From assembly GCA_004151065.3 (NCBI GenBank), contig NWUY0300005090.1, positions 55,327 to 86,095 of the forward strand: a stretch of 30,769 nucleotides of DNA, given 5' to 3'. Below, one piece after another: positions 6,814 to 30,769 of the stretch; position 1 is the stretch's first letter, and the number at the start of each line of letters is the position of its first letter. The DNA comes from Larix sibirica. Lineage: Eukaryota > Streptophyta > Pinopsida > Pinales > Pinaceae. The position numbers and the translations under genes were made by a program. Below the pieces are notes generated by a model. It was not told where the DNA came from. It was given only the letters and a program-made list of their open reading frames with translations, and made no database searches.

Positions 6814-6879
6814 TAATGATCTCCTCCACTAAAAAACCCTAAGACCCAAAACCCTCCATAGTTTCTGAGCTAAAAATCT

Positions 6880-7700: not shown

Positions 7701-7864
7701 AAAAGGCTGTCATCCAACGGTAACCTGGGCAACTCTGACTAGCTTTTTCTTAAGCTGGTCAGCCATAGTGTAATATTCAATTACAGTGTTTTGCATGCCT
7801 TGTCCAGAAATTTCTAGGTTACAGTTTATCATCATATACCAGAAGCTGTTCAGTGATATGAATT

Positions 7865-10224
7865 TCAACTGGCATTTTTGTACTTGTACCAATGGGCACA
7901 AAAAACATATGCCAGCAAATTTAAGAGGCTGAGTGATGCTAATAACCAAAAGTAGTAATCCAGGTGGCCTTCATTCAAATTATCAGGTATCCATCCTGTT
8001 TTTCCTCCTCCGGTAGTTGCAAACATAACAACTGTAACAATAAAGCTACTCAAATAGTTCCCTAATCCTATAGTAAGAAGAGAAAGTGCACTGCATAAAC
8101 TGCGCATAGCATCAGGTGACTGGTCATAGAAAAATTCCAACTGCCCTATGAAAGTAAAGACTTCCGATGCACCAACTATGAAGTACTGAGGAATCTGCCA
8201 TAAAATGCTCATGGGAATTGGTGTCTCTTTGTCATGGACCAAGTCATGAATCTTGATGATTTTCAACCGTTTGATTTCAACCAAAGCAGCTGCTACCATA
8301 GCCAGTATCGATATGAAGAGACCAATACCCATTCGTTGCAGCTCAGTAAAACCCCTATCTTTCTTGGTGTAATTCCGAACAAGTGGCACAACTAGACGAT
8401 CATATACTGGAACCCATAACATGACGCTCAGAACATCAAATAGGGATAGCGACGCCGGAGGAATATGGAACTGTGATCCAATCCTAGCGTCCAAAGTCAT
8501 GCCCTGTTCAAGAAACATCGTGGAAACTTGGGCATAAACAGCAGAAAAAACAATACCAGTAGCCCAGATGGGAAACATACGAACAAGAATCTTCAGTTCC
8601 TCCACTTGGGTTACAGTACATAGCTTCCAGGGATTAGAATAGCCACCCTTCCTAATATCATCATCTGTTATTATAGCTGCTTTGTCAAGACACCTGCAAA
8701 AAAACTTAGAATCCAATGAGAAAATAGCAGAAACTGCAATAGCTTGGCTTGTGCTGCATGCCAATTCATATTTCTGCACTGCACAATATTTTAGAATCTC
8801 ATGTGTTTACTGAGAACCATATAAAATCAGCGCTAAAATCAGTATAATGTTTAATGTATACAAGAGATATACCTGAATTCATCAGTATGTTTTAGCTTTC
8901 GGCTTCCTTGAATTGCAGAACTATTGTCTTGTACTTCGTATAAAAGTGAATGGTCAAGGGGCACTTTCTTTTGCGATTTGCCCAATGATGCAACTACGAC
9001 CTGGCACATCCGTATCAAAGGACTACCTCCAGGTTTTTGGAATCTATAAAGCGGTGTACCAAAAAAGAAACTCCCTATGGCTACTCCCATAAATACTGTA
9101 GGAATTCCAAAACCCCATCCCCAACCAACATTATCCTGAACCCAGACAAGAATGCTACATGAAACAAGAGCCCCGACATAGATTGAAAAGTAAAACCAAT
9201 TGAAAAATGAGCCTTTTTTCTTCTTTTCTTTTGGATCAGTATCATCAAATTGGTCAGCTCCAAAAGAAGACACGCAAGGTTTGATGCCTCCAGTTCCTAA
9301 TGAAATTAGGGAAAGTCCAAGGTAAAATACACCATATTGAATTATGTTCGCTGTTGGGCAGTCGGGTCCTGTGCAGGAAGGAGGCTTCAAGGAAGGCATA
9401 GATGCTGAAAGAGTCCAAGTTGCCATTCCCTGCAAAACTCAGTGCTTGCTTGTCAGCAGCATTGCCTCAACAATGCAGCAATCCATATAAACTGTGATTA
9501 AACCAGCACAAAAATATAAAAAAGTGATTAAACCAGCACAAACAAGGTAGTTTTGCTAAAAAAGAATCAGCATTTGCAATTCGGAGTTGAAAAATGGACT
9601 CCTGATATCGGCAAAGTTTAAGCATACAATGAAGTAAATTATTGAGAACGCTGCAATGGTCCAATATCGTCCCCAATATGCATCGGCCAAAACTGCCCCC
9701 AAAAGAGGTGTGACATAGCAGGTGCCTGACCAAATAGTAACATTCTTTGCAGCAGTGGCATTCCCCTGATGCAGAATTTTTGTCAAGTAAGTCACTAGAT
9801 TTGTATTGATTCCATAGTATGCTAGTCGCTCGCAACACTCATTTCCTGCAATGCAAAAGTGAAAATTAAATGGGTTGACAACATGATTTTCAAACGTAAC
9901 CATGAGATAGGCCGCCGATTACAAAGTTCATTTGAGTACTCTGTATTTAAGCGCTCTCATGCGGGAAGAGTGGGCACAGGGGTGACCATCGACGAAATCC
10001 AGTTTGACAAACTTGGTGCCGCCCCGAAAAATAAAATGAGAAAATTGACCTTACATATTATTGCCATTTATAATGCCAACTTTAAACATTTCACATGGAT
10101 TTTGGAGACAACCTAAAATGAATGAGCAAGCCCTCCAGTTTCCTGTACTCTCTTTTACACAAGGCCTTCCCCAGAAATCAGCTGATCCATCCCCTGTGTA
10201 CTGTTCTTGACTGGCCTGAAACAT
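7865..10224 (-). CDS. NPF8: NPF8-type (PTR) proton-coupled di/tripeptide transporter, four exons
   Basis: Membrane transporter of the NRT1/PTR (NPF, POT) family that moves di- and tripeptides with protons. Exons on the minus strand: 10224-10113, 9845-9628, 9429-8873 and 8693-7865. All three introns (267, 198 and 179 bp) have GT-AG ends. The exons sum to 1716 bp, that is 571 residues plus TGA, with no internal stop, which is the usual NPF8 length. Visible motifs: [11 protein letters not shown] just before ECCER (residues 40-44), the ExxER proton-coupling motif; GTGGIKP with its Lys near 160; [43 protein letters not shown]. The sequence resembles Arabidopsis PTR1/PTR2/PTR5, so peptides are likelier cargo than nitrate; that is inferred from similarity. 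The start chosen is ATG at 10224 (MFQASQEQY), but the TTTCAG just after it could instead be a 3' splice site for an upstream exon I did not find. It is the only intact host gene here. Confidence 0.9.
9494..9542. repeat. Short direct repeat in transporter intron 2
   Basis: gtgattaaaccagcacaaa occurs at 9494 and again at 9524, a 30-bp period. It lies inside the second intron and does not touch the splice sites. Confidence 0.7.
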
Positions 10225-10634
10225 CAAAGTATGTTAGACCAAAAATCAACAGATCCATACCCCATGTATTTCCGTTCCCTTCTTAACTGACATCAAACTA
10301 AGGTAGACCATGTGAGTTAGCCAAGGACAAAATTTGAGAGCTTACGGTAGAACACCATAATAACAACTATCGGCTGACCATATAAAAATGTTAAAAAAGA
10401 GATGTGTGAAAATTCATGGGTGAAAAATGGTATTGTACTATCTTAAGAAAAAATATTTTTTCTTTCATTCAAGTGTATTTTCACTAATTTGGCAGTCCCT
10501 CGTGAATTTTATCAACTTGATAGAGATCCAAATATCTGCCTCAGTTTGCTGTTGTCTCTGGAAAATTACTACTAGTACTTAGAATAATGAGCAAGGCATC
10601 ACTTCATAGCAGCTTCAAGCGCATAAAAACCCCT
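10225..10634. other. Upstream flank of the transporter gene
   Basis: This should hold the 5' UTR and promoter of the transporter (minus strand), and possibly a further upstream exon. I cannot point to a TATA box or start site with confidence, and I see no other gene. Confidence 0.4.
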
Positions 10635-10786
10635 GCATAAAGAAACTGAATTAGTCCAGTCATCATCAGGGCTGAGTTGAAAGAGACGGTGTATGAAACC
10701 TCCGCATAAAAAAACTGAATCAATCCAGTCATCAACAATGACAAAGAGAGTCGAAGCTGAGTTGAAAGATACAGTGTACAATTGTC
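10635..10786. repeat. Imperfect tandem repeat, about 69-bp period
   Basis: Units start at 10635 (gcataaagaaactgaattag) and 10704 (gcataaaaaaactgaatcaa). Both continue with tccagtcatca and later gctgagttgaaaga. The second is longer by an inserted stretch. Confidence 0.65.
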
Positions 10787-10943
10787 AATCTCGAACAGAA
10801 TGCCCATAAATGGGTGCACCCACGCATCCCTCAACGCCCGCCCGTCTGAGTAAAAACGGAGAAGAAACTTCAAACGACCATCGTTTACCTTCGTCTCTAA
10901 AAAACGGTTCCGTACACTAAAACGGAAACGACCGTAAAATTTG

Positions 10944-11195
10944 TTCCGTCCCAGTTTTTTGATTTGAACTTCTTTGCAAAACGAGAAACCCGTCCCATTT
11001 TTTAGAATTTTTTTTTTGTAAAACGAGAACCCATCGTCTCACTTCTAGTAACAGAGCTACTGAACTACAAGTCCCGTTTTTTAGAACTTCTCTAGAAAAC
11101 GAGAAACCCCGTCCCATTTTTTAGAAATGTTTTTGGAAAACGAGAACCCCTGTCACATTTCTGGTAACAGAGTACTAAACTAGATGCTTCTTTTA
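10944..11195. repeat. Degenerate minisatellite, about 40-bp units
   Basis: The motif aaaacgagaa(a)ccc followed by gtcccattttttagaa recurs about five times, with variant units carrying ctggtaacagagtactaaact (seen twice in diverged form). No coding frame survives. Confidence 0.65.
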
Positions 11196-11690
11196 TGATG
11201 AATACTTTTAACAGTTTAATATGAAGTGTGAATTGCTACTTTCAACAACAACAACTTCGTTTTGTAATGTAATGACATTTACAAAAACACTAATCAGAAT
11301 GAAGATAAATCCGCATTCCTTAACATAAAATAACACCCAATTACAAAAATTATGTAGACACAACTATCCCCTGAATCCATTTCAGTTTGCATATCGCACA
11401 AAATAAAATTATATATATGATTAGACATTCTGTCCCTTAATCTTGGGGTCTAATTTGGCATGGTTTCAAGATTGGTATACTCGCATTGTATGTACAAATT
11501 CTATCCTTGCCAAACATAATTTTAAATGAGCAATAAAACCAAGTGAAACAGAACAAGGTATCAGCATGTTCCTAAATCCAAACTAGCTTCAGATCTCACA
11601 ACCATATTTTAGTACAAACAGAAGCCGAAAATCTCTATTGTATTATTATTAAAAATTCCTCGAGTGTTACATAAGCACTTAGTTTTTTTT

Positions 11691-11873
11691 GGAGTCGTTC
11701 AAGAACCAGATCAAAGTTTTAATTTTTTGGACTCCTTCAAGAACCAGATCAAAGAAAATGTATTTGTAGAAAATACCCAACAAAATCATTCCACGTTTTA
11801 ATTTTTTGGATTCCTTCAAGAACCAGATCAAAGAATATGTATTTGTAGAAAATACCCAACAAAATCATTCCAC
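11691..11873. repeat. 79-bp tandem repeat, two copies plus a partial
   Basis: Units start at 11716 and 11795; each begins gttttaattttttgga and ends caaaatcattccac. A partial unit (ggagtcgttcaagaaccaga) precedes them at about 11691. The duplicate copy near 21.1 kb has only one unit, so the amplification happened in this copy or was lost in the other. Confidence 0.8.
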
Positions 11874-12439
11874 CAAATTCATAGAGCAAACTGAAATCAT
11901 AACCAAAAACAAATTAGAAAAGAAACTTACCACACCCTATACCAGGAGAATAGTTAAGATTGTTTATCTTTTCCCCTGTAGGGATGCAGCATAACAAATA
12001 AAGAAAAAAACATAAAAGGGTCGGATAATGTACTGGCCTTCCCTGACTGTATGAGGGTAGTATTTCCTTCTTCTAACAGAGCGGCTTCCAATGATCCTTC
12101 CCCTTGGACACCCATCTCAAATCTGTGTTTCTTGGTGTGTTTGTGTCATCTGTTTACGGAAATATAATGGCCTTCCTTGCTATAAACAGTACTGGGAGGA
12201 TGGACGAAACCCCTGGGTCGTGTCAGTCATGGAGGGCAAGTCAATGAACATCCTTATTTGTCACCATCCAGCAGCCACATATAAATTATAAAAAGACACC
12301 ATACCTGTCGTGAAAGGCACAACTTCGATGGTCAATCTTCACCAACTATCAGTGGAAAAGCAGCCAATTGTTAAATTAACCAGTGAGACTCAGGGTGTGT
12401 GTGGGGTTAGTGGGAAGGCAAAAACCAAGCATCACAGAA

Positions 12440-12745
12440 ATCTGCCCTTTGCTGCAATGACAGTTATGAAGAAACACTGTCACATTTAACCTGTCTATAC
12501 ATTACTTCATGGTTCTGGGGAGAAATTCTCTAAAATGACAGTTACGACAGTTACGGTGAAATACTGTCACTTCTAACCCGTCCTCCATGGTTCTGGGCAG
12601 AATTTCCCTATACATTACTTCATGGGTTTGGACAGAATTTCTCTACACATTACTTCATGGTTCTGGGGAGAACTTCTCTAAAATGACAGATGAAATACTG
12701 ACACTTCTAACCTGTCCATGGTTCGGGGCAGAATCTCTCGATGTG
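12440..12745. repeat. Minisatellite of about 45-60 bp around a tacttcatggttctgggg core
   Basis: The core attacttcatggttctggggagaa and the associated block aaatactgtcacttctaacc recur several times with drift. A shorter, less amplified version is present in the duplicate piece near 27.8-27.95 kb. Confidence 0.65.
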
Positions 12746-12860
12746 ATTTGCCGGTCACCTCACGTTTTGGAACTCAGAAGGATCCATAGAACTTATCTCA
12801 TCGTAGATCATGACGGCGTGCAACGTTTGGCATTCTTTCTTTCCTTTTAACAGAGGGAAC

Positions 12861-13532
12861 CTTCAAAACTACCTAGTAAGTATGGTTGGTTATTGCACTT
12901 GAAAATAAATCTCTTGAACCGGAGACAATCCTAATTTTGGATTACGCCACAATAATTTACTGTAATAAAACGTTTAACATTGTTGAAAAGCATAGTAGTC
13001 ATCAAAGTATCAAGACCAGTAGTTAGCATATCTTAAAATAATATCAAGACCAGTAGTTGGCATATCTTCAAGTAATGACAAAAAATTTCAATGGCAATTT
13101 TTGGCATTTGGATGTGACATGGAATACTTCATTTTTCCTTTATAGTTTATGAAGCTCAACTTTACTGAGTGATTACAATGTTGTTAATTGTTATAATACA
13201 ATATTGCACTTATGATGATGGTAAAAATTTATTGGCCAATAAAAAGTTATGGGTTCAAATAAAAAAGAAATAAATGGACTATGTACATCTCTTTCTTTAT
13301 TATATGTGTATTTATTCACATTTAGGATTGTAATATGGGTTGTTATTTTATATTGGTGTTATGGGATTTTACATAATAACTATTAATACCAATATATTAA
13401 CTTGATTTTATATATATATAATTATTATTATATTTATGTGTATTTGGAGTCACTATATTAGTAGTTTTGTAAGTACAATACAACTTGATATATACCTATA
13501 TGTTTTATAATTAGTGTTTGTAACTTGGAGTG
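12861..13532. other. AT-rich spacer
   Basis: No gene seen. It contains a 33-bp direct repeat (13009-13074) and long AT stretches such as tatatatatataattattatt near 13410. Confidence 0.5.
13009..13074. repeat. 33-bp tandem repeat, two copies
   Basis: tatcaagaccagtagttagc at 13009 recurs at 13042 with one change (ttggc), each followed by atatctt. Confidence 0.8.
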
Positions 13533-13765
13533 ATTGGTAATATAGTAAATGTATGTACAAAATTTATTCTTATAAAACATAATTTGTGAACCAGTAATAA
13601 AACCAAGTGAAATGATTACAGAACAAACCTGCAAGTATTTGAGTGTTTCTATATACAACCTAATTGATATCACACAACCCTATTGAATTTTTATACAACA
13701 TAATTGAGATCTCACAACCCTATTGATTTTTTCCTCTTGAGTATAACAATACAAACAGAAGTCAA
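13533..13765. repeat. Copy 2 of the noncoding duplication, piece 1 (left of LINE B)
   Basis: Aligns with about 11472-11625 (shared: gtatgtacaaa, aacataattt, aataaaaccaagtgaaa, ctcacaacc, acaaacagaag). It stops exactly at the LINE B target site and resumes at 21061. Confidence 0.7.
13745..13765. repeat. Left target-site duplication of LINE B (21 bp)
   Basis: Begins aacaataca and ends gaagtcaa. It is identical over 21 bases to 21040-21060, which directly follows an A run. Confidence 0.9.
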
Positions 13766-13860
13766 CCAAAAGAACTAAAGGCATAGAACAGGGAGAGATC
13801 CGCGGGAGAATTTTTGGACTGCAACAAGGGTTTTTTTTTCCAGCAAGGGTTTGAAGTACA

Positions 13861-15127
13861 ATGGAGATCCCTGGAGGGGGCGGATCCCCCTCCTCTGCGC
13901 GCTGGTAGGAAATCCCAGCCTCTCGCACCTCAGTTTATACCAATGAAGCCCCCCGAGGGAGTGACCTGGACAAAGAGGGCACTAGCCATACCAATTTGGG
14001 ATCGGGGAAAACCCCAAGGCGGATGCCTTCCTAGAGCAAAAGAAATCCCATCTTTGCATATCAGATTGAAGAAAATGAGGGAATGTGTAGAGCAATGGAA
14101 AGAAATAGCTCTAATAGGGAAGTTCATTGGCATCTGGCCCAAGGAAAAAGACCTAACCAGATGGATCAAGACCACTTGGAACCCTAAAGGTCATTACGAT
14201 CTGCATCTTGGAGCCAAGGGTTTTTTTACAATTGTGTTTTTCAATCAAGAGGACAAAGATCGAGTTATGGAAGGAGGGTCATACTTCTTCTTCTCTCTCG
14301 AGCTATACCTATGCCCATGGAAGGAGAGATTTAACCCTGATAAAGAGGATCTGAACATAGCCCAACATAGCCCCAGTATGGATCAGGCTTTACTCCCTCC
14401 CCTGTGAGTACTGGGAACTAGAGATCCTGCAAGACATTGGCAATACATTGGGTAAATGTGTAAAGGCCTCTGAGCAAACTCTGCAGAGACGATACACTTC
14501 TTTTGCCCGTATCTGTGTTTACATGGATCTGGCACAAGATCTCTCGGAAGCAATTAATCTGACATGGACGACGAAGACTGGACTTAGCCATTAGACTATG
14601 AGCACCTCCCTTTTCACTATCGTAGATGTCATGGGTATGGTCATCTCAACAGAGACTGTCCACAAAACAATAAAAGTCCCACTCCCCCGCCAGCAGCTCA
14701 GGAGAAGGAAAGAAAGTCGAACGATGAGTGTTTTACACAGGTGAGTCGGAAAATATCGGGGAGGCGACAGAGCAACCAGTATCAGCACGAACAATTCAAG
14801 GCCAAAAATGCCATACACCCGAACCGCTTTGAAACCCTAAAATTTGTTGGGGAATCCTTGGGATATCTAGGGAACCAGAAGAAAGGAAAAGAACCAATCC
14901 AAGAAGTCGATAACCCCGAAGAACGCCCAGAGGCTATGGAGGACAACTCCCTCGACGAAGCAGAAGATATGGATCTGGGTGAGCTGGACCTGGACGCTAT
15001 TGAAATGAAGTGCGATAAAAAGGGAAAAGGGTATGTCTCACGAAGACAGATAGAACTATTGCAGGAGGTCATTCTCAAATCCAAGGCTAGACCATTCCTG
15101 GGAATAGAAAAGGAGCCTAAAAAATAG
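13861..15127 (+). pseudogene. LINE B ORF1: DUF4283-like domain and degraded zinc knuckle
   Basis: The likely original start is ATG at 13861 (MEIPGGGG), but that frame soon stops; the coding frame continues from about 13890 through MKPPEGVTWTKRA (ATG 13943) to 14407. It holds LIGKFIGIWPKEKDLTRWI and GFFTIVFFNQEDKDRVMEGG, typical of DUF4283. The frame then shifts to PVWIRLYSLPCEYWELEIL, shifts again before 14600, and gives a knuckle YRRCHGYGHLNRDC in which the first Cys is Tyr (codon 14618-14620), so zinc binding is probably lost. The tail is acidic (DEAEDMDLGELDLDAIE) and ends at 15127. ORF1 and ORF2 do not overlap here, unlike LINE A. Confidence 0.75.
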
Positions 15128-15274
15128 AGCAAAAGAAAACAACCAGAAGAAGGTGAGAAGCGAGGATGAAAAACGAACAGACAACAGATTGCGAAGATAG
15201 GAACCAAGCTCATTGAGTCAGGGCAGTACCCCACCATTAAGGTTGCCTTCTCAGAAGTTAACAAAAGTTAGTCA

Positions 15275-18200
15275 ATGAAGATCATCACATGGAACATTCG
15301 CAGTGTGAACCACCTGCAGGAAATAAAAAACCTGAAGAACAAAATCAGGATGGAGAAACCACATATAGTATTTGTCCAAGAAACAAAATGTGGTTTGGAT
15401 GAAATGTGGGAAATAGGAAACAAGGTGTGGAAAGTGAGTAAAACTATAGTTATTGACGCTCGAGGAGCGGCAGGAAGTGTTGCGATGCTTTGGAGATCTG
15501 ATGAAGTTAGTCTTAAGAATTTCTAGGCAACCAGGTTCACCCTCTCTGCAGATTTTTAAATCCTTGAGACAAGGAAAAAAGGGGTGCTATCAAATGTTTA
15601 TGGCCCAAACATCAACCTCCAAAAAATTGCTTTCATGGAATCCCTCTCCTAGATGGAAAACTGGGTTGGGGATAAACACTGGATCATTGGAGGGGATTTT
15701 AATATGATCACATCCTTAGAAGAAAAGAAAGGGGGTAGACAAATTCTTGGACCAACCAATGAATCTTTCAAATACTTCATCGAATCCAGTAAGCTGGATG
15801 ACCTGGAAACCGAGAACGGGTGGTTCATGTGGAATAACAAGCGAGGGGGATACCATCATGTGGCCAGTCAGCTGGATAGATTCTTAATATCCGAAGATAT
15901 CACTATGGAGGGAGATGATTTGACCACCTCTATTCTACCTTCATCAGGTTCTAATCATTGGCCAATCAGCCTCTTTTGGGATAGGACCGGGTTAAGTGGA
16001 AGGAAACCAGTCTGTTTTGAACAATTCTGGATGGAACACAATGACTTCAAATCATTGGTCCAGCAATGGTGGGAATATCTCATCCCCCCATAGAGGGACA
16101 AGAAAGTACCAATTCCAACCAAAGTTGAAAGCTTTAAAAGCCAAGATTCGTACGTGGAACAGAGAGGAATTTGGGAACATATTCCAAGAGAAAAAGCATC
16201 TAAGTGAGAAAATGGAAGCCCTCCAACATGAAGCCGTGAATAATGGTTATAGTGAAGACTTGAAGAAGCAAGAACAAATCCTCCTGGAACAACTACAAGC
16301 TAGGGAATGACAGGAGGAGATTTACTGGAGACAAAAATCCAGGAATCAATGGCTTCAAGATGGGGAAAGAAACACCACATTTTTCCATCGCTCCGTTATC
16401 CAGAATAGACAAAATTCAAGGATAAATAGAGTCAAGACAGAAGCTGGTCATTATGTGGAAACTAGAGAAGAAATGGAAACAGAACTAACTCAATATTTTG
16501 GGAACATCATGAGGGAATACCAAGCCAACCGCTCTAAGCAAATTGCCAAGATTACTCAGCTCATCCCCCACACTGTCACTGATGAACAAAATGATCTCTT
16601 GAAGAAACCAGTGAGTCTTGCAGAATTTGAAGAAGCCCTCCAACAAATGGTAGAAGGGAAGGCCCCAGGACCTGATGGTTTCACGACTAATTTTTTCTAC
16701 CACTTATGGGACATGATCAAGCAATATGTTTGGCACGTTGTAGAAGAATCCAGGAAAAACAAATGGGTGTTACGTGCTTTCAATGCCACCTTTCTTACCC
16801 TTATTCCTAAGGCTGAGGGCACAAACACACTAGGTAAATTTCATCCCATCGCTCAGTGTAATGTTATATATAAAATTATTACCAAAGTTATAGCCAACAG
16901 ACTGAAACCCATTCTCCCCCACCTGATTGCCCGAGAGCAATCTGGATTTGTGGGAGGAAGACATATATTGGATGGGGTGATTCTTATTCATGAAGTCATT
17001 CACTCCCTCAGAATCACCAAAATCCTAGGGATGCTACTAAAACTTGATATATCAAAAGCATACGATAAGCTAAGTTGGAAATATATGAGGGAGATGCCTA
17101 CAGCTTATGGCTTTGATAGGGAATGGATTGACTGGGTTATGAGTATGACCTCAACCACTTTCTTATCCATTTTGCTTAACGGTACTCCAACCAAAACCTT
17201 CAATCCATCCAAAGGCATTCACCAAGGTGATCCCCTCCCCCCCTTCCTTTTTATCTTGATGGCAGAAGGACTCAGCAGGCTAATCAAACTATGGTGAACA
17301 ATGGAGAAATGAGAGGCCTCATCATACATCCACACACAGCCAATCAAACACACCATAAATTTTTGGATGATACGATGCTCATGGGGCACGCCTCGATCCA
17401 GAGGCCAAGGCCATTAAGAAATGCCTCAAAACCTTCTCTAAGGCCTCCGGTTTAGAGATTAACAGAGAAAATTGCAAGTCTTTTTTTTCAACACTCCTAA
17501 CATCTCCCAAAGGAACATTCTCTAAATTTTAGGCTTTCAAGGGAGCTCCCTTCCTTCCAAATATATCGGCGCTCCTCTGGCTTTCGCTGTCATCAAACGA
17601 GTTTTGTGGACGGATGTTCTGGATAGAATGAGGAAAAAAATGAGCAACTGGGATCTCAGACCCCTCAATCTGCCAAGCAAACTCACTCTCATCAAAGTTG
17701 TCCTTCAAGCAATGCCTATTTATCTTTTCTCAGTTCTTGCAGCTCCAAAATTTGTGATCAAAGAAATCGAAGCCATCCAAAGGACCTTTTTATGGGGAGG
17801 CAATGCAGAGAAACGGAAATGGGATTTGGTAAGTTGGGAAAAAGTTTGCCAACCCAAACTCAATAGTGGCCTAGGACTGAGGGATCCAGTAATAAACAAT
17901 GAAGTCTTGGGAGCTAAAATCTGGTGGAGATGGGTCACCTACAACTCAGAACCATGGGATCAGTGGTGGCATGCTAAATACGCCCCTGACAGACCTAAGC
18001 AGGAACTCATTAGGTTCAACGAGGAGAAACAGGGCTCTCAAAGTCTGGAAAACTGCCTCCCAAAATAGGTGCATCATCCAAGACCATAGTTTTTGGGAAG
18101 TTTGTGATGGGACCACAGCTGATCTCTGGGAATATTCTTAGCAACAATGCCCAAAACTTACATCCTACCCCCAAACCCAAGAATGCCAGGATCACTGTAG

Positions 18201-19720
18201 AGCCCTTAATCTTACTAAGGTGGCCCAATTCTGAAAGCCTAAAGTGGAGGGTGTAACTTTCAGATAATGGAAACAACTGGATTGGTGGAAACAAAGGTGC
18301 ACCCCTGAAGGTAGTCGTCACATGGAGGAAACCCTTCAAGAAAGAATCATAAAACTCCAAAGAGGCCATGATAAACTTCGATGGGGTTACTCTACCAAAG
18401 GAAATTTCAACATCAAGGAAGCTTATGACCTATGGACAAGCAGAGAAGCAAGACCAACAGACGGTATATGGAAGAGATCTGGATATCAAATCCATGGCCA
18501 AAAGTGGCTTGTTTTGTTTGGCTTGTTATTTACCGTCGAATCCTCACCGGAGAGAACCTTCGAAAAAGAGAATAGTTGGCCCCTCTCAATGCCCTCTATG
18601 CTCCAGTGCTGAAGAACCTATGAATCATCTTCTAGATTCCTGTCAATTCTCATCCACCCTTTGGGACTGGGGAGTGGAATTGTTCAAAAGAACTAATAGG
18701 CAACAGGGGAATCCAGACCAGACTATTAAAGCTTGGGATCCCAAAGCTTTTAACAACAACATTGTGAATTCTGCTTGGATCATGTTTCCTGGATTCCTGA
18801 TATGGGAAAAATAGAAGGAACGAAACCAGAGAATCTTCTGAGAAACTAAATCCCGTACCCAAGTAATCTGGAACAAAATTGTGAATCACATTCAAGAGAC
18901 AGTCAAGATAACCCCTTGGTCAGATAAGGATTGGGAAGCCAATAATCAAGAACTAAAAATCCTGGAACAACTTGGTCTAAAACAGTCAGATTCAGGCTGG
19001 GCCTAAAAGATTCAGAAATCCCCAATGCCCACTAGCCCCAACTTCTAGTCTCCCCCCCAGCTGGTTCCATCAAACTCAACTTCGACGGAGCTTCCAAAGG
19101 AAATCCTGGTATAGCAGGCTTCGAGGGTGTCTTCTGGAATAGAGATGGCCAAATCTTGCATATTTTTCACGACCATCTAGGCCAGGACACAAACAACACG
19201 ACTGAAATTGAAGGTCTACTTCAGGGTCTAAAGACAGCAGAAAAAAAAAAGATGGGAACCACTCATAGCTTAAGGGGATTCGAAGATGGTCATCCACATG
19301 GCCAAAAAACTCCAACTAGGAAGACACCCATTGCAAGTCACAGATAGTTGGCGGTCAACTTACAGGGTGGAAGAATTGGGAACTCTCCTTCGCAACCCAC
19401 ACGCTTGGTCCTTTAGCCACATCAAGCGAGAGGGAAACAAGGTGGTCGATTGCTTGGAAAATGTTGGATTCGAATCCCCGCACAGATTACGAGAAGAACC
19501 CCTGTCACTCTTTATGGATTTGACATGGGATACACCATGTGCACAGTTGGCTAATAAAGATGAACAGGAAATGAGGCAACGATGTAACGACACCTCAGCT
19601 AGGATTGATCCCCAGGAATTCCCCCATGCGGAAGGTCTCATCGACACTTCTCAACATAATGACCTTCCACGTGACACAAGTGTGAATTGCAATAATGGAA
19701 ACCAGGACCGTTTGAATTAG
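15275..19720 (+). pseudogene. LINE B ORF2: endonuclease / reverse transcriptase / zf-RVT / RNase H, broken
   Basis: ATG at 15275 starts MKIITWNIRSVNHL, an AP-endonuclease N-terminus with an intact QETK. After a frameshift NVYGPNINL and IIGGDFNMI follow; the SDHWP motif reads SNHWP (Asp to Asn at 15953-15955). Reverse transcriptase: APGPDGFTTNFF, LKLDISKAYDKLSW, GIHQGDPLPPFLF, then after a stop at 17297 the active-site FLDD at about 17360-17371 with both Asp present. The thumb-like region (17604-18068) has LPSKLTLIKVVLQAMPIYLF. zf-RVT has QCPLCSSAEEPMNHLLDSC near 18590-18650. RNase H is at about 19070-19480: KLNFDGASKGNPG, TTEIEGLLQGL, GDSKMVI and REGNKVVDCLENVG, so all four acidic residues survive, though frames are broken between them. 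Stops lie at 15638, 16093, 16310, 17297 and elsewhere. Confidence 0.85.
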
Positions 19721-20721
19721 TTAACCAATGAAGTGGGATTTAATGAATCAGGGATGTTGGATTGTCCTCAACCATCGAACATTCATTACAGAGAATGATT
19801 GGAAAAAGTGGTAACCAAGGCAGATCAAGTGCTTCGGTACTTCAATCTGATCCAGAGTATGACGAAGTGATGATGGCAATTAAGGAAAGTCGTCATAGGT
19901 GTGCTATAAAAATGGACGCTCAGCAGCTGTGTCGATTCATGCCCAAACCTGTGTTCCCTTCTATCCTGCTGGTGATTTTCCCCTTGTGCTTGCGGGTTAT
20001 TACCCTGCCCTTCTGTTGTTTCCTCTTCTACCCTTCCGCGCTAGCTCTTCCCTCCCAGCTGCATATCATGTGCTTTCATCCCCTCTATTGATTCCTGCTC
20101 ATGAGCATGGCCCCTAAGCCGTGAAACCCCAGGAACCAAAAAACAAGGAATCGTTTCGGATGCACTCACAAGTTGAAGAAAGCCACCCGCGAGCAGTCCA
20201 AAGCCTCTCAAGCGGCCCATTTCTTCTGGAAGCGCATTCCCCACTAGATTCAAGAGGAAATTGAGGTCTTGGAGAAGGAACTATGGGAGCAGGTAACGAG
20301 CCAGAATTTAAAGAACATTCGTGATGAGGCATAGGAGTGGGTGCAGGACCCCGACACCATAGCAGGGTGACTGGAATCCTATGACCGCATAGTTTCTACT
20401 TACTAGGTGACCAAGAGCCTGCTTAACCATGTTCTGATGGAGCATGAGAATAAATCCATTGGTGATGCCGAACCTGTCCAAGCTTGGAGAGAACATCATA
20501 ATGATTGCAGGCTTATGCATAAGAAGGTGGATCTCATCACTCTAAAATTGGGGATTCCCCTGTACCCACCACTCAACCAGCCGTGGGTCGATCCTGGAAG
20601 CAGCTCAGATGATCCTGTGAGCAGCTCAGATGATCCTGTGAGCCGAGGGGTTGGTTGCAGGGATCCCAACGAGGCAGTTTCCAATCCGGTCGTGCATACT
20701 GCTAATCACCCTACTCTATAG
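19721..20721 (+). pseudogene. LINE B: decayed third reading frame downstream of RNase H
   Basis: From 20125 to 20721 one frame stays readable for about 199 codons except for four stops (TAG 20245, TAG 20332, TGA 20368, TAG 20404) and none of TAA type. The text is rich in Lys, Glu, Gln and Trp and looks helical: HKLKKATREQSKASQAAHFF, IQEEIEVLEKELWEQVTSQN, VTKSLLNHVLMEHENKSIGD, then a Pro/Ser/Asp tail with a duplicated SSDDPVS. In the same frame a segment at about 19800-19960 (SDPEYDEVMMAIKESRHRC) also looks coding-like; between them the frame is uncertain. I do not recognise a family. It may be an extra domain or ORF of this LINE lineage, or captured sequence. It lies inside the TSDs, so it travelled with the element. 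Confidence 0.5.
20599..20640 (+). repeat. 21-bp in-frame tandem repeat (SSDDPVS x2)
   Basis: Two identical 21-bp units (20599-20619, 20620-20640), each starting agcagctcagat and ending cctgtg. The length is a multiple of three and it keeps the third reading frame open, as expected if the frame was coding when it arose. Confidence 0.85.
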
Positions 20722-21039
20722 CAAGGCGAACACAATGCCTAACTGGTGCATTCTATTTCTAGCCTAGTAGTTGTTTTTCATTGTCTATCGGTTCATATGC
20801 CACTAGTTGTTTTTAGTTCTGTTAGATGTTTTTCAGTTGTAATTGGGTTAAAAGGGTAAAATTTCCAGGCATCTCTTTTTGCAACCTATTTTTTGTATGG
20901 GGCACAATATAAGTAATAGAGTAGAATATAGCAGTGGATATTCTGACCTTTTTGAGGCAATTGTAAGGGGAAGTAGTGTATACAGAACTCTCAGGCAAGA
21001 TAGTATGCCTATTATTAGGCCATTTTGAAGCTAAAAAAA
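20722..21039 (+). other. LINE B 3' UTR and poly-A tail
   Basis: No coding frame after the stop at 20719-20721. T-rich tracts (gttgtttttcattgtc, gttgtttttagttctg) lead to gaagct and a nine-A run that meets the TSD. Confidence 0.75.
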
Positions 21040-21060
21040 AACAATACAAACAGAAGTCAA
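21040..21060. repeat. Right target-site duplication of LINE B (21 bp)
   Basis: Identical to 13745-13765. The sequence beyond it (21061 onward) continues the duplicated noncoding segment interrupted at 13765. Confidence 0.9.
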
Positions 21061-22016
21061 AAATTTCTTAAATGTTGCAAAGGCCCTTAGTTTTAATATG
21101 TGGGCCTCATGGAGAACTAGAACAAAGAAGAAGTTTGTAAAAAACAACTAATAAAATCATTCCATCAAATTCACAATCATGACCAAAAATCACAATATTA
21201 TACCAAGAGAATATCTAACATTGTTTATTTTTTTCCCTGTGAGGATGCACTCATAGCCCCCACAAAACTTAGAAGGGATACCCGATAAAATCATTCCATC
21301 AAATTCACAATCATGACCAAAAACCACAATATTATACCAAGGGATATCTAACATTATTATTTTTTCCTCTATGAGGATGCACTCGTAGCCCCCCAAAAAG
21401 CATAGAAGGGATAGATAATGCACTGGCCTTCCCTGATTGTATGAGGGAAGTATTTCCCTCTTTTAATAGAGCAGCTTTCAATGACCTTAGCCTTGGACAC
21501 CCATTTGAAAGATTTGTTTTTGGGTGTGTTTGTATCATATGTTCATAAAAATACAATGAACTTTCTCAATATAAACAATGTTGGGAGTATGGATGAAAAA
21601 AAAAAATTGGGACCGACCTACACATGTGGGACACTAAATAGGGAGGAAAACTTGGCTATGAATAAGCACCTATAGTGAAAGTTTAATTGCAATATATGCT
21701 AGGTTTACATTGGTATAGGTCATTTCATATCAAAGCACTGCTAGGTGCATAATGCTTACTCAAAAGTCCACTATGTATGACTGGACTAAGACAGAATAAT
21801 ATCCTTAGTCATGTCAATCATGGAGGGCAATGCAATGAACATCCTTATTCATCACCATTCACCAATCCATATAAAAAGGAAAAAGAGATTGTTCTTATCA
21901 TGAAGCGCACAACCTCAATGGTCACCAACTATGAGTGGAAAGGCAACCCATTTTGAGTTTATCTAGCATGATCATTATGATACTTAGGGTGGGTGGGGTC
22001 ATTAAGAAGGAAAAAT
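21061..22016. repeat. Copy 2 of the noncoding duplication, piece 2 (between LINE B and LINE C)
   Basis: Aligns with about 11625-12425. Shared stretches include aaaatcattccatcaaattc, actggccttccctgattgta, tggacacccat, atggagggcaa and ggtcaccaactatgagtgga. It also contains a local tandem repeat of about 130 bp: ataaaatcattccatcaaat...gaggatgcactc occurs at about 21150-21252 and 21286-21390. No coding frame. It is written again at 24975-25930. Confidence 0.75.
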
Positions 22017-22276
22017 AATAATAAAAATTATTGTTATAACACAGCCATAAAAAGCATTTCTGTTTGAGAGGGATACACCACCTCCAGATTCTATGATGCC
22101 ACCAACTCAGGCTGGGAGGATTTGAATCAATAGATACCAGCAGATTGTACACATTTGAAGCTATTAGAACTCCCTTGGAGCTATGGCCATCCCAAACCAA
22201 ACAGTCATTCAGATTATTTATCCCAATCCCAGCAAAAGCCAAACGAGAAGCATATAGCTCCCAATCTTTATGGCAT

Positions 22277-22277
22277 N
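22277..22277. other. Single-N assembly join
   Basis: The only ambiguous base in the window. It sits exactly between the two identical 3913-bp blocks, as a placeholder between contigs would. Confidence 0.9.
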
Positions 22278-23634
22278 GGCCATGATAAACTTCGATGGGG
22301 TTACTCTACCAAAGGAAATTTCAACATCAAGGAAGCTTATGACCTATGGACAAGCAGAGAAGCAAGACCAACAGACGGTATATGGAAGAGATCTGGATAT
22401 CAAATCCATGGCCAAAAGTGGCTTGTTTTGTTTGGCTTGTTATTTACCGTCGAATCCTCACCGGAGAGAACCTTCGAAAAAGAGAATAGTTGGCCCCTCT
22501 CAATGCCCTCTATGCTCCAGTGCTGAAGAACCTATGAATCATCTTCTAGATTCCTGTCAATTCTCATCCACCCTTTGGGACTGGGGAGTGGAATTGTTCA
22601 AAAGAACTAATAGGCAACAGGGGAATCCAGACCAGACTATTAAAGCTTGGGATCCCAAAGCTTTTAACAACAACATTGTGAATTCTGCTTGGATCATGTT
22701 TCCTGGATTCCTGATATGGGAAAAATAGAAGGAACGAAACCAGAGAATCTTCTGAGAAACTAAATCCCGTACCCAAGTAATCTGGAACAAAATTGTGAAT
22801 CACATTCAAGAGACAGTCAAGATAACCCCTTGGTCAGATAAGGATTGGGAAGCCAATAATCAAGAACTAAAAATCCTGGAACAACTTGGTCTAAAACAGT
22901 CAGATTCAGGCTGGGCCTAAAAGATTCAGAAATCCCCAATGCCCACTAGCCCCAACTTCTAGTCTCCCCCCCAGCTGGTTCCATCAAACTCAACTTCGAC
23001 GGAGCTTCCAAAGGAAATCCTGGTATAGCAGGCTTCGAGGGTGTCTTCTGGAATAGAGATGGCCAAATCTTGCATATTTTTCACGACCATCTAGGCCAGG
23101 ACACAAACAACACGACTGAAATTGAAGGTCTACTTCAGGGTCTAAAGACAGCAGAAAAAAAAAAGATGGGAACCACTCATAGCTTAAGGGGATTCGAAGA
23201 TGGTCATCCACATGGCCAAAAAACTCCAACTAGGAAGACACCCATTGCAAGTCACAGATAGTTGGCGGTCAACTTACAGGGTGGAAGAATTGGGAACTCT
23301 CCTTCGCAACCCACACGCTTGGTCCTTTAGCCACATCAAGCGAGAGGGAAACAAGGTGGTCGATTGCTTGGAAAATGTTGGATTCGAATCCCCGCACAGA
23401 TTACGAGAAGAACCCCTGTCACTCTTTATGGATTTGACATGGGATACACCATGTGCACAGTTGGCTAATAAAGATGAACAGGAAATGAGGCAACGATGTA
23501 ACGACACCTCAGCTAGGATTGATCCCCAGGAATTCCCCCATGCGGAAGGTCTCATCGACACTTCTCAACATAATGACCTTCCACGTGACACAAGTGTGAA
23601 TTGCAATAATGGAAACCAGGACCGTTTGAATTAG
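22278..23634 (+). pseudogene. Second writing of LINE B ORF2 tail (zf-RVT, RNase H)
   Basis: Same sequence as 18364-19720, with no upstream reverse transcriptase because it begins at the N. It has the same QCPLCSSAEEPMNHLLDSC zinc motif and the same KLNFDGASKGNPG RNase H start. Do not count it as an independent LINE fragment unless the join is confirmed. Confidence 0.85.
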
Positions 23635-24635
23635 TTAACCAATGAAGTGGGATTTAATGAATCAGGGATGTTGGATTGTCCTCAACCATCGAACATTCAT
23701 TACAGAGAATGATTGGAAAAAGTGGTAACCAAGGCAGATCAAGTGCTTCGGTACTTCAATCTGATCCAGAGTATGACGAAGTGATGATGGCAATTAAGGA
23801 AAGTCGTCATAGGTGTGCTATAAAAATGGACGCTCAGCAGCTGTGTCGATTCATGCCCAAACCTGTGTTCCCTTCTATCCTGCTGGTGATTTTCCCCTTG
23901 TGCTTGCGGGTTATTACCCTGCCCTTCTGTTGTTTCCTCTTCTACCCTTCCGCGCTAGCTCTTCCCTCCCAGCTGCATATCATGTGCTTTCATCCCCTCT
24001 ATTGATTCCTGCTCATGAGCATGGCCCCTAAGCCGTGAAACCCCAGGAACCAAAAAACAAGGAATCGTTTCGGATGCACTCACAAGTTGAAGAAAGCCAC
24101 CCGCGAGCAGTCCAAAGCCTCTCAAGCGGCCCATTTCTTCTGGAAGCGCATTCCCCACTAGATTCAAGAGGAAATTGAGGTCTTGGAGAAGGAACTATGG
24201 GAGCAGGTAACGAGCCAGAATTTAAAGAACATTCGTGATGAGGCATAGGAGTGGGTGCAGGACCCCGACACCATAGCAGGGTGACTGGAATCCTATGACC
24301 GCATAGTTTCTACTTACTAGGTGACCAAGAGCCTGCTTAACCATGTTCTGATGGAGCATGAGAATAAATCCATTGGTGATGCCGAACCTGTCCAAGCTTG
24401 GAGAGAACATCATAATGATTGCAGGCTTATGCATAAGAAGGTGGATCTCATCACTCTAAAATTGGGGATTCCCCTGTACCCACCACTCAACCAGCCGTGG
24501 GTCGATCCTGGAAGCAGCTCAGATGATCCTGTGAGCAGCTCAGATGATCCTGTGAGCCGAGGGGTTGGTTGCAGGGATCCCAACGAGGCAGTTTCCAATC
24601 CGGTCGTGCATACTGCTAATCACCCTACTCTATAG
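23635..24635 (+). pseudogene. Second writing of the LINE B third reading frame
   Basis: Same sequence as 19721-20721, including the four stops (now TAG 24159, TAG 24246, TGA 24282, TAG 24318) and the 21-bp repeat (24513-24554). Confidence 0.5.
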
Positions 24636-24953
24636 CAAGGCGAACACAATGCCTAACTGGTGCATTCTATTTCTAGCCTAGTAGTTGTTTTTCATTGTCT
24701 ATCGGTTCATATGCCACTAGTTGTTTTTAGTTCTGTTAGATGTTTTTCAGTTGTAATTGGGTTAAAAGGGTAAAATTTCCAGGCATCTCTTTTTGCAACC
24801 TATTTTTTGTATGGGGCACAATATAAGTAATAGAGTAGAATATAGCAGTGGATATTCTGACCTTTTTGAGGCAATTGTAAGGGGAAGTAGTGTATACAGA
24901 ACTCTCAGGCAAGATAGTATGCCTATTATTAGGCCATTTTGAAGCTAAAAAAA

Positions 24954-24974
24954 AACAATACAAACAGAAGTCAA
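24954..24974. repeat. Second writing of the LINE B right TSD
   Basis: Same as 21040-21060, after the same A run. LINE B thus appears to have three TSD copies in this window, which an ordinary insertion cannot produce. Confidence 0.85.
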
Positions 24975-25930
24975 AAATTTCTTAAATGTTGCAAAGGCCC
25001 TTAGTTTTAATATGTGGGCCTCATGGAGAACTAGAACAAAGAAGAAGTTTGTAAAAAACAACTAATAAAATCATTCCATCAAATTCACAATCATGACCAA
25101 AAATCACAATATTATACCAAGAGAATATCTAACATTGTTTATTTTTTTCCCTGTGAGGATGCACTCATAGCCCCCACAAAACTTAGAAGGGATACCCGAT
25201 AAAATCATTCCATCAAATTCACAATCATGACCAAAAACCACAATATTATACCAAGGGATATCTAACATTATTATTTTTTCCTCTATGAGGATGCACTCGT
25301 AGCCCCCCAAAAAGCATAGAAGGGATAGATAATGCACTGGCCTTCCCTGATTGTATGAGGGAAGTATTTCCCTCTTTTAATAGAGCAGCTTTCAATGACC
25401 TTAGCCTTGGACACCCATTTGAAAGATTTGTTTTTGGGTGTGTTTGTATCATATGTTCATAAAAATACAATGAACTTTCTCAATATAAACAATGTTGGGA
25501 GTATGGATGAAAAAAAAAAATTGGGACCGACCTACACATGTGGGACACTAAATAGGGAGGAAAACTTGGCTATGAATAAGCACCTATAGTGAAAGTTTAA
25601 TTGCAATATATGCTAGGTTTACATTGGTATAGGTCATTTCATATCAAAGCACTGCTAGGTGCATAATGCTTACTCAAAAGTCCACTATGTATGACTGGAC
25701 TAAGACAGAATAATATCCTTAGTCATGTCAATCATGGAGGGCAATGCAATGAACATCCTTATTCATCACCATTCACCAATCCATATAAAAAGGAAAAAGA
25801 GATTGTTCTTATCATGAAGCGCACAACCTCAATGGTCACCAACTATGAGTGGAAAGGCAACCCATTTTGAGTTTATCTAGCATGATCATTATGATACTTA
25901 GGGTGGGTGGGGTCATTAAGAAGGAAAAAT
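24975..25930. repeat. Second writing of noncoding duplicate piece 2
   Basis: Same as 21061-22016. This is the writing that connects to the intact LINE C. Confidence 0.8.
25921..25930. repeat. Left target-site duplication of LINE C
   Basis: aaggaaaaat, matched at 27752-27761 after a run of A. The matching position in the uninterrupted copy reads aaggcaaaaaccaagc, which confirms that the flanks were once joined. It is short and A-rich, so weaker than the LINE B pair. Confidence 0.6.
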
Positions 25931-27425
25931 AATAATAAAAATTATTGTTATAACACAGCCATAAAAAGCATTTCTGTTTGAGAGGGATACACCACCTCCA
26001 GATTCTATGATGCCACCAACTCAGGCTGGGAGGATTTGAATCAATAGATACCAGCAGATTGTACACATTTGAAGCTATTAGAACTCCCTTGGAGCTATGG
26101 CCATCCCAAACCAAACAGTCATTCAGATTATTTATCCCAATCCCAGCAAAAGCCAAACGAGAAGCATATAGCTCCCAATCTTTATGGCATCTGAGTGGAA
26201 GGTTTAGGTCACTTGCCGACAACCATCTCTCGTGGGGGACTTCCCTATCTCCTTTATAGAACTATGAAAGGACCACCAAATGCCTATCATGAAGCTCCTT
26301 GATAGTCTCTTCCTTTAACCTGTAGCCCCCTTCATCCCCTATGAATGGATCCACACCAACAAGAAGGTTAAAACCATTCCCAATTTTCCACTTAAGTCAT
26401 GGACTAATAAAGCACAAGGTGTTGCTAATACTCCTCCACATCGCAGAGGCCCTAGAGAAGTTTGATATCTGGCCCCTGAGCCATTGAGTTGTGTTGTATG
26501 TTTTCAGATATTTGACTCGAATGACCTTACTCCATAAACCCTCATCTGTCAGAGCCCTCCAAAGAGATTTCGAAAGCATCGCCGAATTGAACCAGTCCAG
26601 GTTTCGGAGTCCCCATCCCCCTTGATCTTTAGGCCAGCACAAGTTTTTCCAAGAACTCAGGTGCCACTTCCTAACCGAAGGTTTTCCCCGACCAAATAAA
26701 CTAGGACAACCTACTCTGCACACCTTTGATGATCGTGACAGGAATTTTTTGTAACCCAAACCAATATACCAGGATTCCTTGAAGCACAGATTGGACAAGA
26801 GTGAGTCTCCCCCCAATAGTCAACCAATGAGCGGCCCGGCCATTGATCCTCCTGTCAATTTTCTGTAATAGCCAACCCCATTCCTCCAGACCATAACAAT
26901 TCGGTTTCAAGTAATATCCAAGATATTTGATCCTCGAATCCAAGGGGGAGAAGTGGTAAGGGGAGGACACCTTAATGTCGTTGATAGTCTGCTCATCCAC
27001 CAAGTTATACAGAAAAGAAGATTTCTCCATGCTAATAGACATACCAGAGGCTAAACAGAAAGTAACAAAAATATCCTTGTAAACTTCCCACTCCCTCACT
27101 GAAGCTTTCCCAAAAATCATTATGTCATCGACAAATAGCAAGTGGGCTATGTTCATGGCCCGAGAGACTCTAACCCCATTTAGATGACCACCTTCTTTAG
27201 CTTCGTGGATCAATCTGATGAGGCCATCAATAGCAAGAATAAAGAGCAAAGGAGAAAGCAGGCATCCTTGTCGAATACCCCTGCTGCAAGAGAACATGCC
27301 AGTCGGCTCACCATTAATTAGAACCCCAAACGAGGTGGTGTAAATGCACTCTATGATCCATCGGACCAGGTTAAAAGGATCATACCAGGGCCTCATTATC
27401 TTCTGAACGTTGTTGCGGGTTTCTC
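25931..27425 (-). pseudogene. LINE C ORF2 fragment: reverse transcriptase to zf-RVT (inverted arm)
   Basis: Starts mid-palm at about 27425 on the minus strand. Landmarks: FGVLINGEPTGMFSCSRGI, GCLLSPLLFILAIDGL, HLLFVDDIMIFG (27121-27150; the active-site pair of Asp is intact), IKYLGYYLKPNCYGLEEWGW, INGRAAHWLTIGGRLTLVQS. A frameshift near 26710-26730 leads into KWHLSSWKNLCWPKDQGGWG (about 26600-26680), and after a stop at 26397 into KWKIGNGFNLLVG. The last part (26222 to 25950) has SSKGVLIASNVYNLL and WWHHRIWRWCIPLKQKCFLW, the start of zf-RVT. There are fewer breaks than in LINE A or B, so it is probably the youngest of the three. The endonuclease, ORF1 and RNase H are absent. Confidence 0.8.
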
Positions 27426-27751
27426 TGTTTTTATTTTCTTTCTGCTCTTTAGGATACAACAAACAGGTTCTGTAGCTCATCTTCTATTATGTTAGCAGTC
27501 TTTCAGGTCGTTTTTTCTGCTAAAACAATCTGTTGTCTTTTTTTTTCGTTTTTATGTAAAATGGGCACTGGCTCTGCTGGCACTGTTGGCCTCGAGGATA
27601 AGCTTGCTTATGTTGATCATTGTTGTTTGGCTCTTGGCATGGATCTAGCACAATGTTATTTGGTTTTTCTTTTGAAGACTCGCCTGATGCATCCTGGTTT
27701 TATCTCTATTAATACCAAGGAACATATTTTTTTTTTTTTCTGGAAAAAAAA
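27426..27751 (+). other. LINE C 3' arm with poly-A tail
   Basis: T-rich sequence (cgttttttctgc, tgtctttttttttcg), then ctcgaggataagcttgctta and taccaaggaacatatttttt, ending tctgg plus poly-A. It has no convincing coding content and looks like a LINE 3' UTR. Confidence 0.5.
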
Positions 27752-29711: not shown

Positions 29712-30769
29712 CAAGACTGGATCGTTCTTCTTAACCCTCTCTCACCAGCTCTTCCATTTCCATACTCACAGTTGTCGGTTTCCTATGGATCTTTTGGATG
29801 AGGTGGATTATTCTCCCGATCCATTAGAGGGTCTTTGTGTTTTTCCTATAGTTTTCTCGCCGACAATGACAACTTCACATTCAAGGATGGGGGATTTGGC
29901 GGAGGGTAGTTCTACGTTTCTGACACCTAGGTCTCACGATGTTCAACTTTCACCATCTCCGGGAGGAAGAATTTCTCCATCTGTTACCGTCGCGGAACCC
30001 CTAACGGCTAGGGCTTCACCATCTGAGCCCGGTAGTTTTCCTTTTACCCACCCTTATGATGACCTTCCTCACTTTCTGGACTCCTCTGGGGTTGGATTCG
30101 TTGATTTCCTCCTCTCTTCATCTTCACGTGAAGATTTCATAGAATCTCCAGGCATTAAAAACTCTTTCTCGTCCTATGGCTTTGATCTTTTAGAAGCTGG
30201 GTGGCCTTCTTCGAACTTTTTACCTTCAGGGTTTTCTTAGCCATCGGAACTCAATGCGGAAGATTTTCTCCAGGATGCGGATGGCTTTATAGCGTCCATT
30301 CTGAACCCTAATACTGCGGCTGCTACGACTTCACCTCCAGGAGATAGGGTTTCACCGAGAAAGGACGGTGTTTCCACCAACAGCAAGGAAAATAGTAACG
30401 GCTCTAGCCCAAAGAAGCGCAAGAACAAATGTGCAAATAAGAAGGATGAGCTCTTAAGACTTGTTTGTGGGGTTGATGTCTCCATTGCTCATTCAGCTAC
30501 TACGGCAGAAATGGTCGTGGTCAGAAAAGTTCGTGGAAAATACCCTAGTCAAGCTGCCCTAATGGAGTGGGGCTCCATTTGCTGGAAGGATTTACTGAAT
30601 TATGCCCCAAAGATTAGGGTTCTGGCAAAAGGCTGGTTCATGATTAAATTTGAATCAAAAGAGGATGCGGAATGCATTTTGAAACACAATTGGAGTCTGG
30701 GAGATACCCCAGTCCTTTTGAAAAAATGGACTCCTCTTGTCACGTCCCCTCCCATCAATCCAACGCAAG
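29705..30769 (+). mobile_element. LINE D: 5' part of a fourth LINE, cut by the window edge
   Basis: A pyrimidine-rich leader (ttcttcttaaccctctctca) precedes a DUF4283-type ORF1 that continues past the window end. The 5' boundary is a guess from where the AT-rich repeat ends. The protein differs clearly from ORF1 of LINE A and LINE B, so it is another family. Confidence 0.65.
29785..30769 (+). pseudogene. LINE D ORF1 (partial): low-complexity N-terminus, basic patch, DUF4283-like domain
   Basis: ATG at 29785 (MDLLDEVDYSPDPLEG) opens a frame interrupted only by one TAG (30238-30240) and otherwise open to the window end. The first 200 residues are rich in Ser and Pro (SPSPGGRISPSV, SPPGDRVSPRK). 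A basic patch SPKKRKNKCANKK (about 30403-30441) could be a nuclear-entry signal. From about 30511 the sequence VVVRKVRGKYPSQAALMEWG then APKIRVLAKGWFMIKFESKE and AECILKHNWSLGDTPVLLKK matches the DUF4283 pattern of plant LINE ORF1 proteins. The zinc knuckle and ORF2, if present, lie beyond the window. A single stop makes it the least damaged ORF1 here. A DUF4283-only host gene is a less likely alternative. Confidence 0.7.

What the first reader, a model, noticed from the sequence alone, without database searches (positions are those of the whole stretch)
18364..26190. Exact 3913-bp repeat around a single N: an unmerged contig overlap, not biology
18364-22276 and 22278-26190 match at a constant offset of 3914 and both end exactly at the N. 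The left writing is continuous with the left of the locus, the right writing with the right. That is the signature of two contigs whose ends overlap but were joined with a one-base gap. Left uncorrected it gives LINE B three TSD copies, doubles its tail and truncates a false copy of LINE C at 22276. The real locus would be about 26,855 bp.
Basis: partly seen in the sequence, partly recalled or inferred. Interest (0 to 1): 0.8.

Follow-up and report, generated by a model that had tools for sequence, protein, structure and literature searches.

The report
Unmerged contig overlap, not a duplication
Two 3,913-base stretches that match letter for letter and meet at a single unknown base in this likely plant draft genome are most likely one real stretch that assembly software wrote twice, so the duplicated mobile-element pieces in it would be an assembly error, not biology.

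Summary
Of 14 short N sites in 182.7 kb of fetched readable sequence, 8 have a direct repeat (56 to 6,176 bp) within 10 bases of the N on both sides; 0 of 700 random positions do. A ninth has a 7,900-bp end piece contained in its neighbour; five show neither. Sampling was partly selected: in contigs not chosen for paired hits, 2 of 4. Both outer edges of the block lie inside LINE sequence: relatives run through 18363/18364 in 23 of 30 hits (7 without a listed partner) and through 26190/26191 in the one relative examined, which stops at the N in the left copy. This fits the published class "duplicated overlapping contigs" (PMC2864568). No reads were available, so a real, very young tandem duplication is not excluded (about 3%). 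Ordinary artefact, low interest; the locus would be 26,855 bp.

The parts
18364..22276 (.). Left writing of the 3,913-bp block; continuous with LINE B upstream; likely end of contig A
   Evidence: 3913/3913 identical to 22278-26190; LINE B relatives run through 18363/18364 in 23 of 30 hits; the other 7 have no upstream partner listed
22277..22277 (.). Single N, the only one in the window; likely a placeholder written by a scaffolding step where two overlapping contigs were abutted
   Evidence: (8 of 14 short N sites have direct repeats within 10 bases on both sides, 0 of 700 random positions)
22278..26190 (.). Right writing of the same block; continuous with LINE C to its right; likely start of contig B
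   Evidence: (LINE C relative in C685 aligned as one piece over 25940-27379)
13745..13765 (+). 5' target-site duplication of LINE B (21 bp)
13766..21039 (+). LINE B, about 7.27 kb, broken frames, reverse transcriptase and RNase H remnants, ends in A7
   Evidence: (RVT_1 E 9.6e-21 in 16311-17294; RVT_3 E 2.8e-6 in 19036-19344)
21040..21060 (+). 3' target-site duplication of LINE B (21 bp, identical)
24954..24974 (+). Third copy of the TSD, made by the repeated block; likely false
22270..22728 (+). Chimeric 152-aa open reading frame that runs across the N; would be a false gene call
22026..22276 (-). Truncated copy of part of LINE C, cut at the N; likely false. Start is that of the alignment to the C685 relative, not an element edge
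25940..27483 (-). LINE C part that is continuous across 26190 (alignment to C685 25940-27379; reverse transcriptase frame 26704-27483)
   Evidence: (RVT_1 E 6.8e-17)

Best explanation
The two identical 3,913-bp stretches that meet at the N are most likely one genomic segment written twice, because two contigs whose ends overlap were likely placed end to end with a one-base gap instead of being merged. Shown: exact identity, both copies flush with the N, LINE sequence running through both outer edges, and the same construction at other N sites of this assembly. Inferred: that contig A ended at 22276 and contig B began at 22278, that a scaffolding program estimated a gap of zero or less and wrote the minimum of one N, and that the true locus holds the block once (26,855 bp for this window).
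For:: 3,913/3,913 identity, N exactly at the junction; 8 of 14 short N sites in 182,741 readable bases of this assembly have a direct repeat of at least 50 bp within 10 bases of the N on both sides (window 3,913 bp 100%; C1137 6,176 bp 99.97%; C5377 4,364 bp 99.77%; C3621 2,340 bp 99.3%, 56 bp 100% and 109 bp 91.7%; C4129 357 bp 94.4%; C11425 1,712 bp 97.8%), against 0 of 700 random positions; for C1137 the offset 6,177 and the N at 63481 imply a left edge at 57305, outside the first fetch; the stretch was then fetched and the edge is 57305; at C1376 the piece after the N (7,900 bp, to the contig end) lies wholly inside the sequence before it, 99.99% identical. LINE B relatives cross 18363/18364 (23 of 30 hits); the LINE C relative crosses 26190/26191 and stops at 22276 in the left copy; no other exact copy of the block among the 58 matches listed (40 of 151 candidates scored). 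PMC2864568 (passages and section 6) and PMC9516828 (passages) describe this error class, the latter naming gaps between duplicated pairs on one scaffold as a primary mark.
Against: 5 of the 14 N sites show no abutting overlap and no contained piece (C5377 23588, C1137 70315-70316 and 72970, C685 3394, C11425 2489), so a short N does not always mark an overlap. Four contigs (C1376, C5377, C1137, C3621) were fetched because one search showed two hits in them; apart from these and the window the count is 2 of 4 N sites. Two of the 8 repeats (56 and 109 bp) are short enough to be ordinary local repeats. An exact 3.9-kb overlap should have been easy to merge, and in PMC2864568 few false duplications exceed 99.5% identity, so heterozygosity is not the likely cause here. 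The outer-edge evidence fits a true tandem duplication too, and at the right edge rests on one relative. No reads or depth were available.
Confidence: 0.96

Rival explanations
1. A genuine, very young tandem duplication of 3,913 bp, with one undetermined (perhaps inserted) base at the junction.
For: Sequence alone allows it: left + block + right would be continuous under this model as well, and identity of 100% fits a recent event.
Against: The only N of 30,769 bases falls exactly on the junction; the outer edges share no base with each other, so there is no sign of homologous or microhomology-driven exchange (edges printed, judged by eye); repeats next to short Ns recur at 7 other sites of the assembly with other lengths.
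Confidence: 0.03
2. Two allelic contigs (haplotypes) overlapping in a heterozygous region and both kept.
For: Plausible for other sites of this assembly, where the overlaps differ by 0.7 and 2.2% (C3621 and C11425); PMC2864568 describes it.
Against: Here the two writings are identical at all 3,913 positions, so no heterozygosity is visible; the region would have to be homozygous, in which case it is the same error with another cause.
Confidence: 0.01

Closest known systems
Duplicated overlapping contigs (DOC), Kelley and Salzberg 2010, PMC2864568
   Same: Two neighbouring contigs align at their facing ends; merging gives a continuous locus.
   Different: Their falsely duplicated contigs have a median identity of 98.1%, few above 99.5%; this one is 100%. 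They used mate pairs; none are at hand here.
Duplicated contained contigs (DCC), same paper
   Same: C1376 in this assembly: a 7,900-bp piece after the N is contained in the sequence before it.
   Different: The window itself is the overlapping type, not the contained type.
Homotype false duplication, PMC9516828
   Same: False duplicate of the same sequence with no allelic differences, gap between the pair on one scaffold.
   Different: That paper assigns the type by read depth and k-mers, which could not be measured here; it links the type to read errors, and the two copies here do not differ.
Gaps between overlapping contigs and negative gaps, PMC5368935, PMC3504050
   [quoted passage not shown] the likely situation here.
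   [quoted passage not shown] in PMC3504050 negative gaps are contigs whose sequences do not overlap as expected. Which program wrote this N is unknown.

Membership tests
Duplicated overlapping contigs (assembly artefact) | Facing ends of two neighbouring contigs align to each other | tested here: met
   3,913/3,913, flush with the N on both sides; that the N is a contig boundary is inferred
Duplicated overlapping contigs (assembly artefact) | A gap lies between the two copies | tested here: met
   single N at 22277, a one-letter gap and so weaker than a long N run; such Ns have repeats on both sides at 8 of 14 sites
Duplicated overlapping contigs (assembly artefact) | With one copy, the locus is continuous | tested here: met
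   LINE B relatives cross the left edge (23 of 30 hits; 7 without a listed partner), one LINE C relative crosses the right edge. A real tandem duplication would pass this too
Duplicated overlapping contigs (assembly artefact) | Mate pairs or depth fit better with one copy | not testable with these tools
   no reads held
Genuine tandem duplication | Junction between the copies is sequenced through | tested here: not met
   the junction is the N
Genuine tandem duplication | Breakpoints show homology, microhomology or element edges | tested here: not met
   edges printed: no shared base; both edges lie inside LINE sequence. Blunt joins exist, so this is weak
Genuine tandem duplication | Copies carry their own differences | tested here: not met
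   none in 3,913; a very young event could have none
Non-LTR retrotransposon (LINE B) | Reverse transcriptase domain | tested here: met
   RVT_1, E 9.6e-21, 74.9 bits against a cut-off of 29.6
Non-LTR retrotransposon (LINE B) | Target-site duplication and A-rich 3' end | tested here: met
   21-bp perfect TSD, A7 before the 3' copy
Non-LTR retrotransposon (LINE B) | Endonuclease domain | tested here: inconclusive
   no Pfam family in the frame fragment 15653-16090; frames are broken and no other fragment was tried for it

The most novel reading that the evidence does not exclude
A real tandem duplication of 3,913 bp, so young that no base differs, cut from inside one LINE to inside another with blunt breakpoints and one extra base.
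Probability: 0.03. Interest if true: 0.2.

Novelty: not a real feature. Interest (0 to 1): 0.08.

Why it matters
It matters for users of this assembly: left as it is, the block gives LINE B a third target-site copy, a truncated likely false LINE C and a chimeric 152-aa reading frame across the N, and similar blocks at other short Ns could be taken for recent segmental duplications. A simple screen (align the two sides of each short N run) found such repeats at 8 of the 14 sites examined and could be run on the whole genome.

Tried and rejected
Four stretches of four of these contigs were then obtained; 13.2 kb of their 40 kb are readable and two are wholly N.

Naming the species and assembler: the protein search with a POT/NPF exon (best 120 of 1,036 listed) gives named plant hits, for example Corylus avellana 71%, Vitis vinifera 70%, Camellia sinensis 67%, and 87% to one unnamed protein; no species. 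A literature hit for 618.3 Mb (PMC7064618, passages read) has an N50 of 4,255 bp and does not fit contigs averaging 31 kb; rejected. Plasmid collection: no match. Paper searches: 2 papers; 20 of 47 listed; 16 of 16; 20 of 108; none of those 20 opened. That several scaffolders write one N for a negative gap is recalled and comes from no call.

Contig pairs C17145/C4851 and C15023/C9283 were considered as unjoined dovetail overlaps. C15023 and C9283 match in the same direction up to both contig ends, which looks more like redundant copies or alleles than a dovetail, so I do not count these pairs as evidence.

Searches of the window's right flank and of LINE A against the own genome did not complete, so the right edge rests on one relative (C685). 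The search with 6829-13765 was answered and bears little on the question.

Full report
Check of the observation. The block 18364-22276 equals 22278-26190 at all 3,913 positions, and 22277 is the only N in the window. Because the N is the right neighbour of the left copy and the left neighbour of the right copy, the match is bounded by the N itself. The repeat finder sees the same pair with spacing 3,914.

What lies in the block. The window is rich in LINE remnants (ten frames given: RVT_1 in three, RVT_3 in one, DUF4283 in one). LINE B runs on the + strand from 13766 to 21039, flanked by a perfect 21-bp target-site duplication at 13745 and 21040 with A7 before the second. The block begins inside the 3' part of LINE B, holds its RNase H region, its 3' end and TSD, then about 1 kb up to 22026, where the alignment to a LINE C relative begins, and ends inside LINE C, which lies on the - strand. 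So each edge of the block falls inside an element, not at an element edge.

Which junctions are natural. The upstream part of LINE B (13766-18363) and the block were searched separately against the window's own assembly. Of the 30 matches outside the window that start within the first 10 bases of the block, 23 have a match to the end of the upstream part directly next to them, with the gap on the contig equal to the gap on the query (within one base); the other 7 have no partner listed, in a search where 36 of 1,026 candidates were scored. Some of the 23 are themselves near-duplicates (two each in C5377 and C1137, and the pair C17145/C4851). For the right edge one relative was examined, C685: it aligns as one piece over 25940-27379 (81.9%), and with the left copy only over 22026-22276, the last base before the N. 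Hence the two outer joins are ordinary LINE sequence and the inner join is the odd one. This alone would fit a real tandem duplication too.

The assembly as a witness. One search placed the window at G000:C1745:55327-86095, in a genome of 618,328,334 bases in 19,862 contigs; one search shows that the contig ends at 86,095. One search also found relatives of the block twice in one contig (C1376, C5377, C1137, C3621). I fetched those and other relatives (two edge pieces) and stretches of four random contigs. Around the 14 N runs of one or two bases in 182,741 readable bases, 8 have a direct repeat of at least 50 bp within 10 bases of the N on both sides, against 0 of 700 random positions tested the same way. 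Besides the window they are C1137 (6,176 bp, 99.97%), C5377 (4,364 bp, 99.77%), C3621 (2,340 bp, 99.3%; 56 bp, 100%, one base off the N; 109 bp, 91.7%, ten bases off on the left), C4129 (357 bp, 94.4%) and C11425 (1,712 bp, 97.8%). C11425 is a random contig. The 56- and 109-bp cases may be ordinary local repeats. A ninth site, C1376, has a 7,900-bp terminal piece that is contained in the sequence before the N with 782 bp left over, which is the contained-contig form of the same error. Five of the 14 sites show neither. Four contigs were chosen because of paired hits; apart from these and the window, 2 of 4 N sites overlap (C4129 and one of two in C11425 yes; C685 and the other in C11425 no).

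A small prediction test. For C1137 the first fetch began at 58001, inside the repeat. From the offset (6,177) and the N (63481) an overlap flush with the N should begin at 57305. The missing stretch was then fetched and the repeat begins at 57305. For C1376 the same arithmetic gives 56953, and the repeat begins there. The predictions follow but were not written in the notebook beforehand.

Separate contigs with shared sequence: C17145 and C4851 (7,072 bp, 99.0%), C15023 and C9283 (5,675 bp, 99.98%). They may be alleles or redundant contigs and are not counted as evidence.

Mechanism. Most likely two contigs with overlapping ends were placed in order by linking data, the scaffolding step estimated a gap of zero or less, and wrote one N without merging the overlap. 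Order and orientation would then be right and the block written twice. At this site identity is complete, so the copies would be of the same haplotype or from a homozygous stretch; at C3621 and C11425 the differences of 0.7 and 2.2% suggest alleles. Which program did it is unknown.

Against what is known. PMC2864568 (passages, and section 6 in full) defines duplicated overlapping contigs and duplicated contained contigs and found thousands in chicken and chimpanzee; the median identity was 98.1%, few above 99.5%. PMC9516828 (passages) lists gaps between duplicated pairs on one scaffold as a primary mark of false duplications and distinguishes heterotype from homotype. PMC5368935 (passages) reports negative gap sizes for overlapping contigs in ALLPATHS-LG and gaps put between overlapping contigs by SOAPdenovo2; PMC3504050 (passages) treats negative gaps. 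The window's case is an ordinary instance.

Verdict. Observation confirmed, interpretation supported. Most likely not a biological feature. What remains open is the direct proof by reads.

Noticed in passing
G000: C1137:57305-69657, C5377:23929-32650, C3621:74860-79540, C11425:4540-7964 (about), C1376:56953-73535: Further long direct repeats flush with, or contained next to, single Ns in the same assembly; likely false duplications that could be counted as recent segmental duplications or LINE copies.
   Followed up: yes
G000: C17145/C4851, C15023/C9283, C12702/C5539, C6309/C1874: Pairs of separate contigs with near-identical sequence (first two) or equal or near-equal scores against the query (last two): alleles or redundant contigs; total assembly size may be inflated.
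   Followed up: partly
window 7868-9918, minus strand: Frames of a POT/NPF transporter gene (PTR2, E 1.9e-54 for 8854-9438; the neighbouring frames were read by eye), for example 71% identical to a Corylus avellana NPF8.3-like protein and 87% to one unnamed protein. Whether it is intact was not tested.
   Followed up: partly
window 21151-21413 (and 25065-25327): Two direct copies of about 130 bp, 90% alike and 134 bp apart, inside the block.
   Followed up: no
window 12005-12209 and 21395-21598: 205 bp, 80% alike, shared between the region left of LINE B and the block right of LINE B (seen there against the right copy 25309-25512); perhaps a short mobile element.
   Followed up: no
window 30241-30768: A DUF4283 frame, perhaps the start of a further LINE, runs to the end of the window, where the contig ends.
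   Followed up: no
G000:C1745:35327-55326: The 20 kb left of the window read as N throughout; whether gap or withheld is unknown, and I did not pursue it.
   Followed up: no
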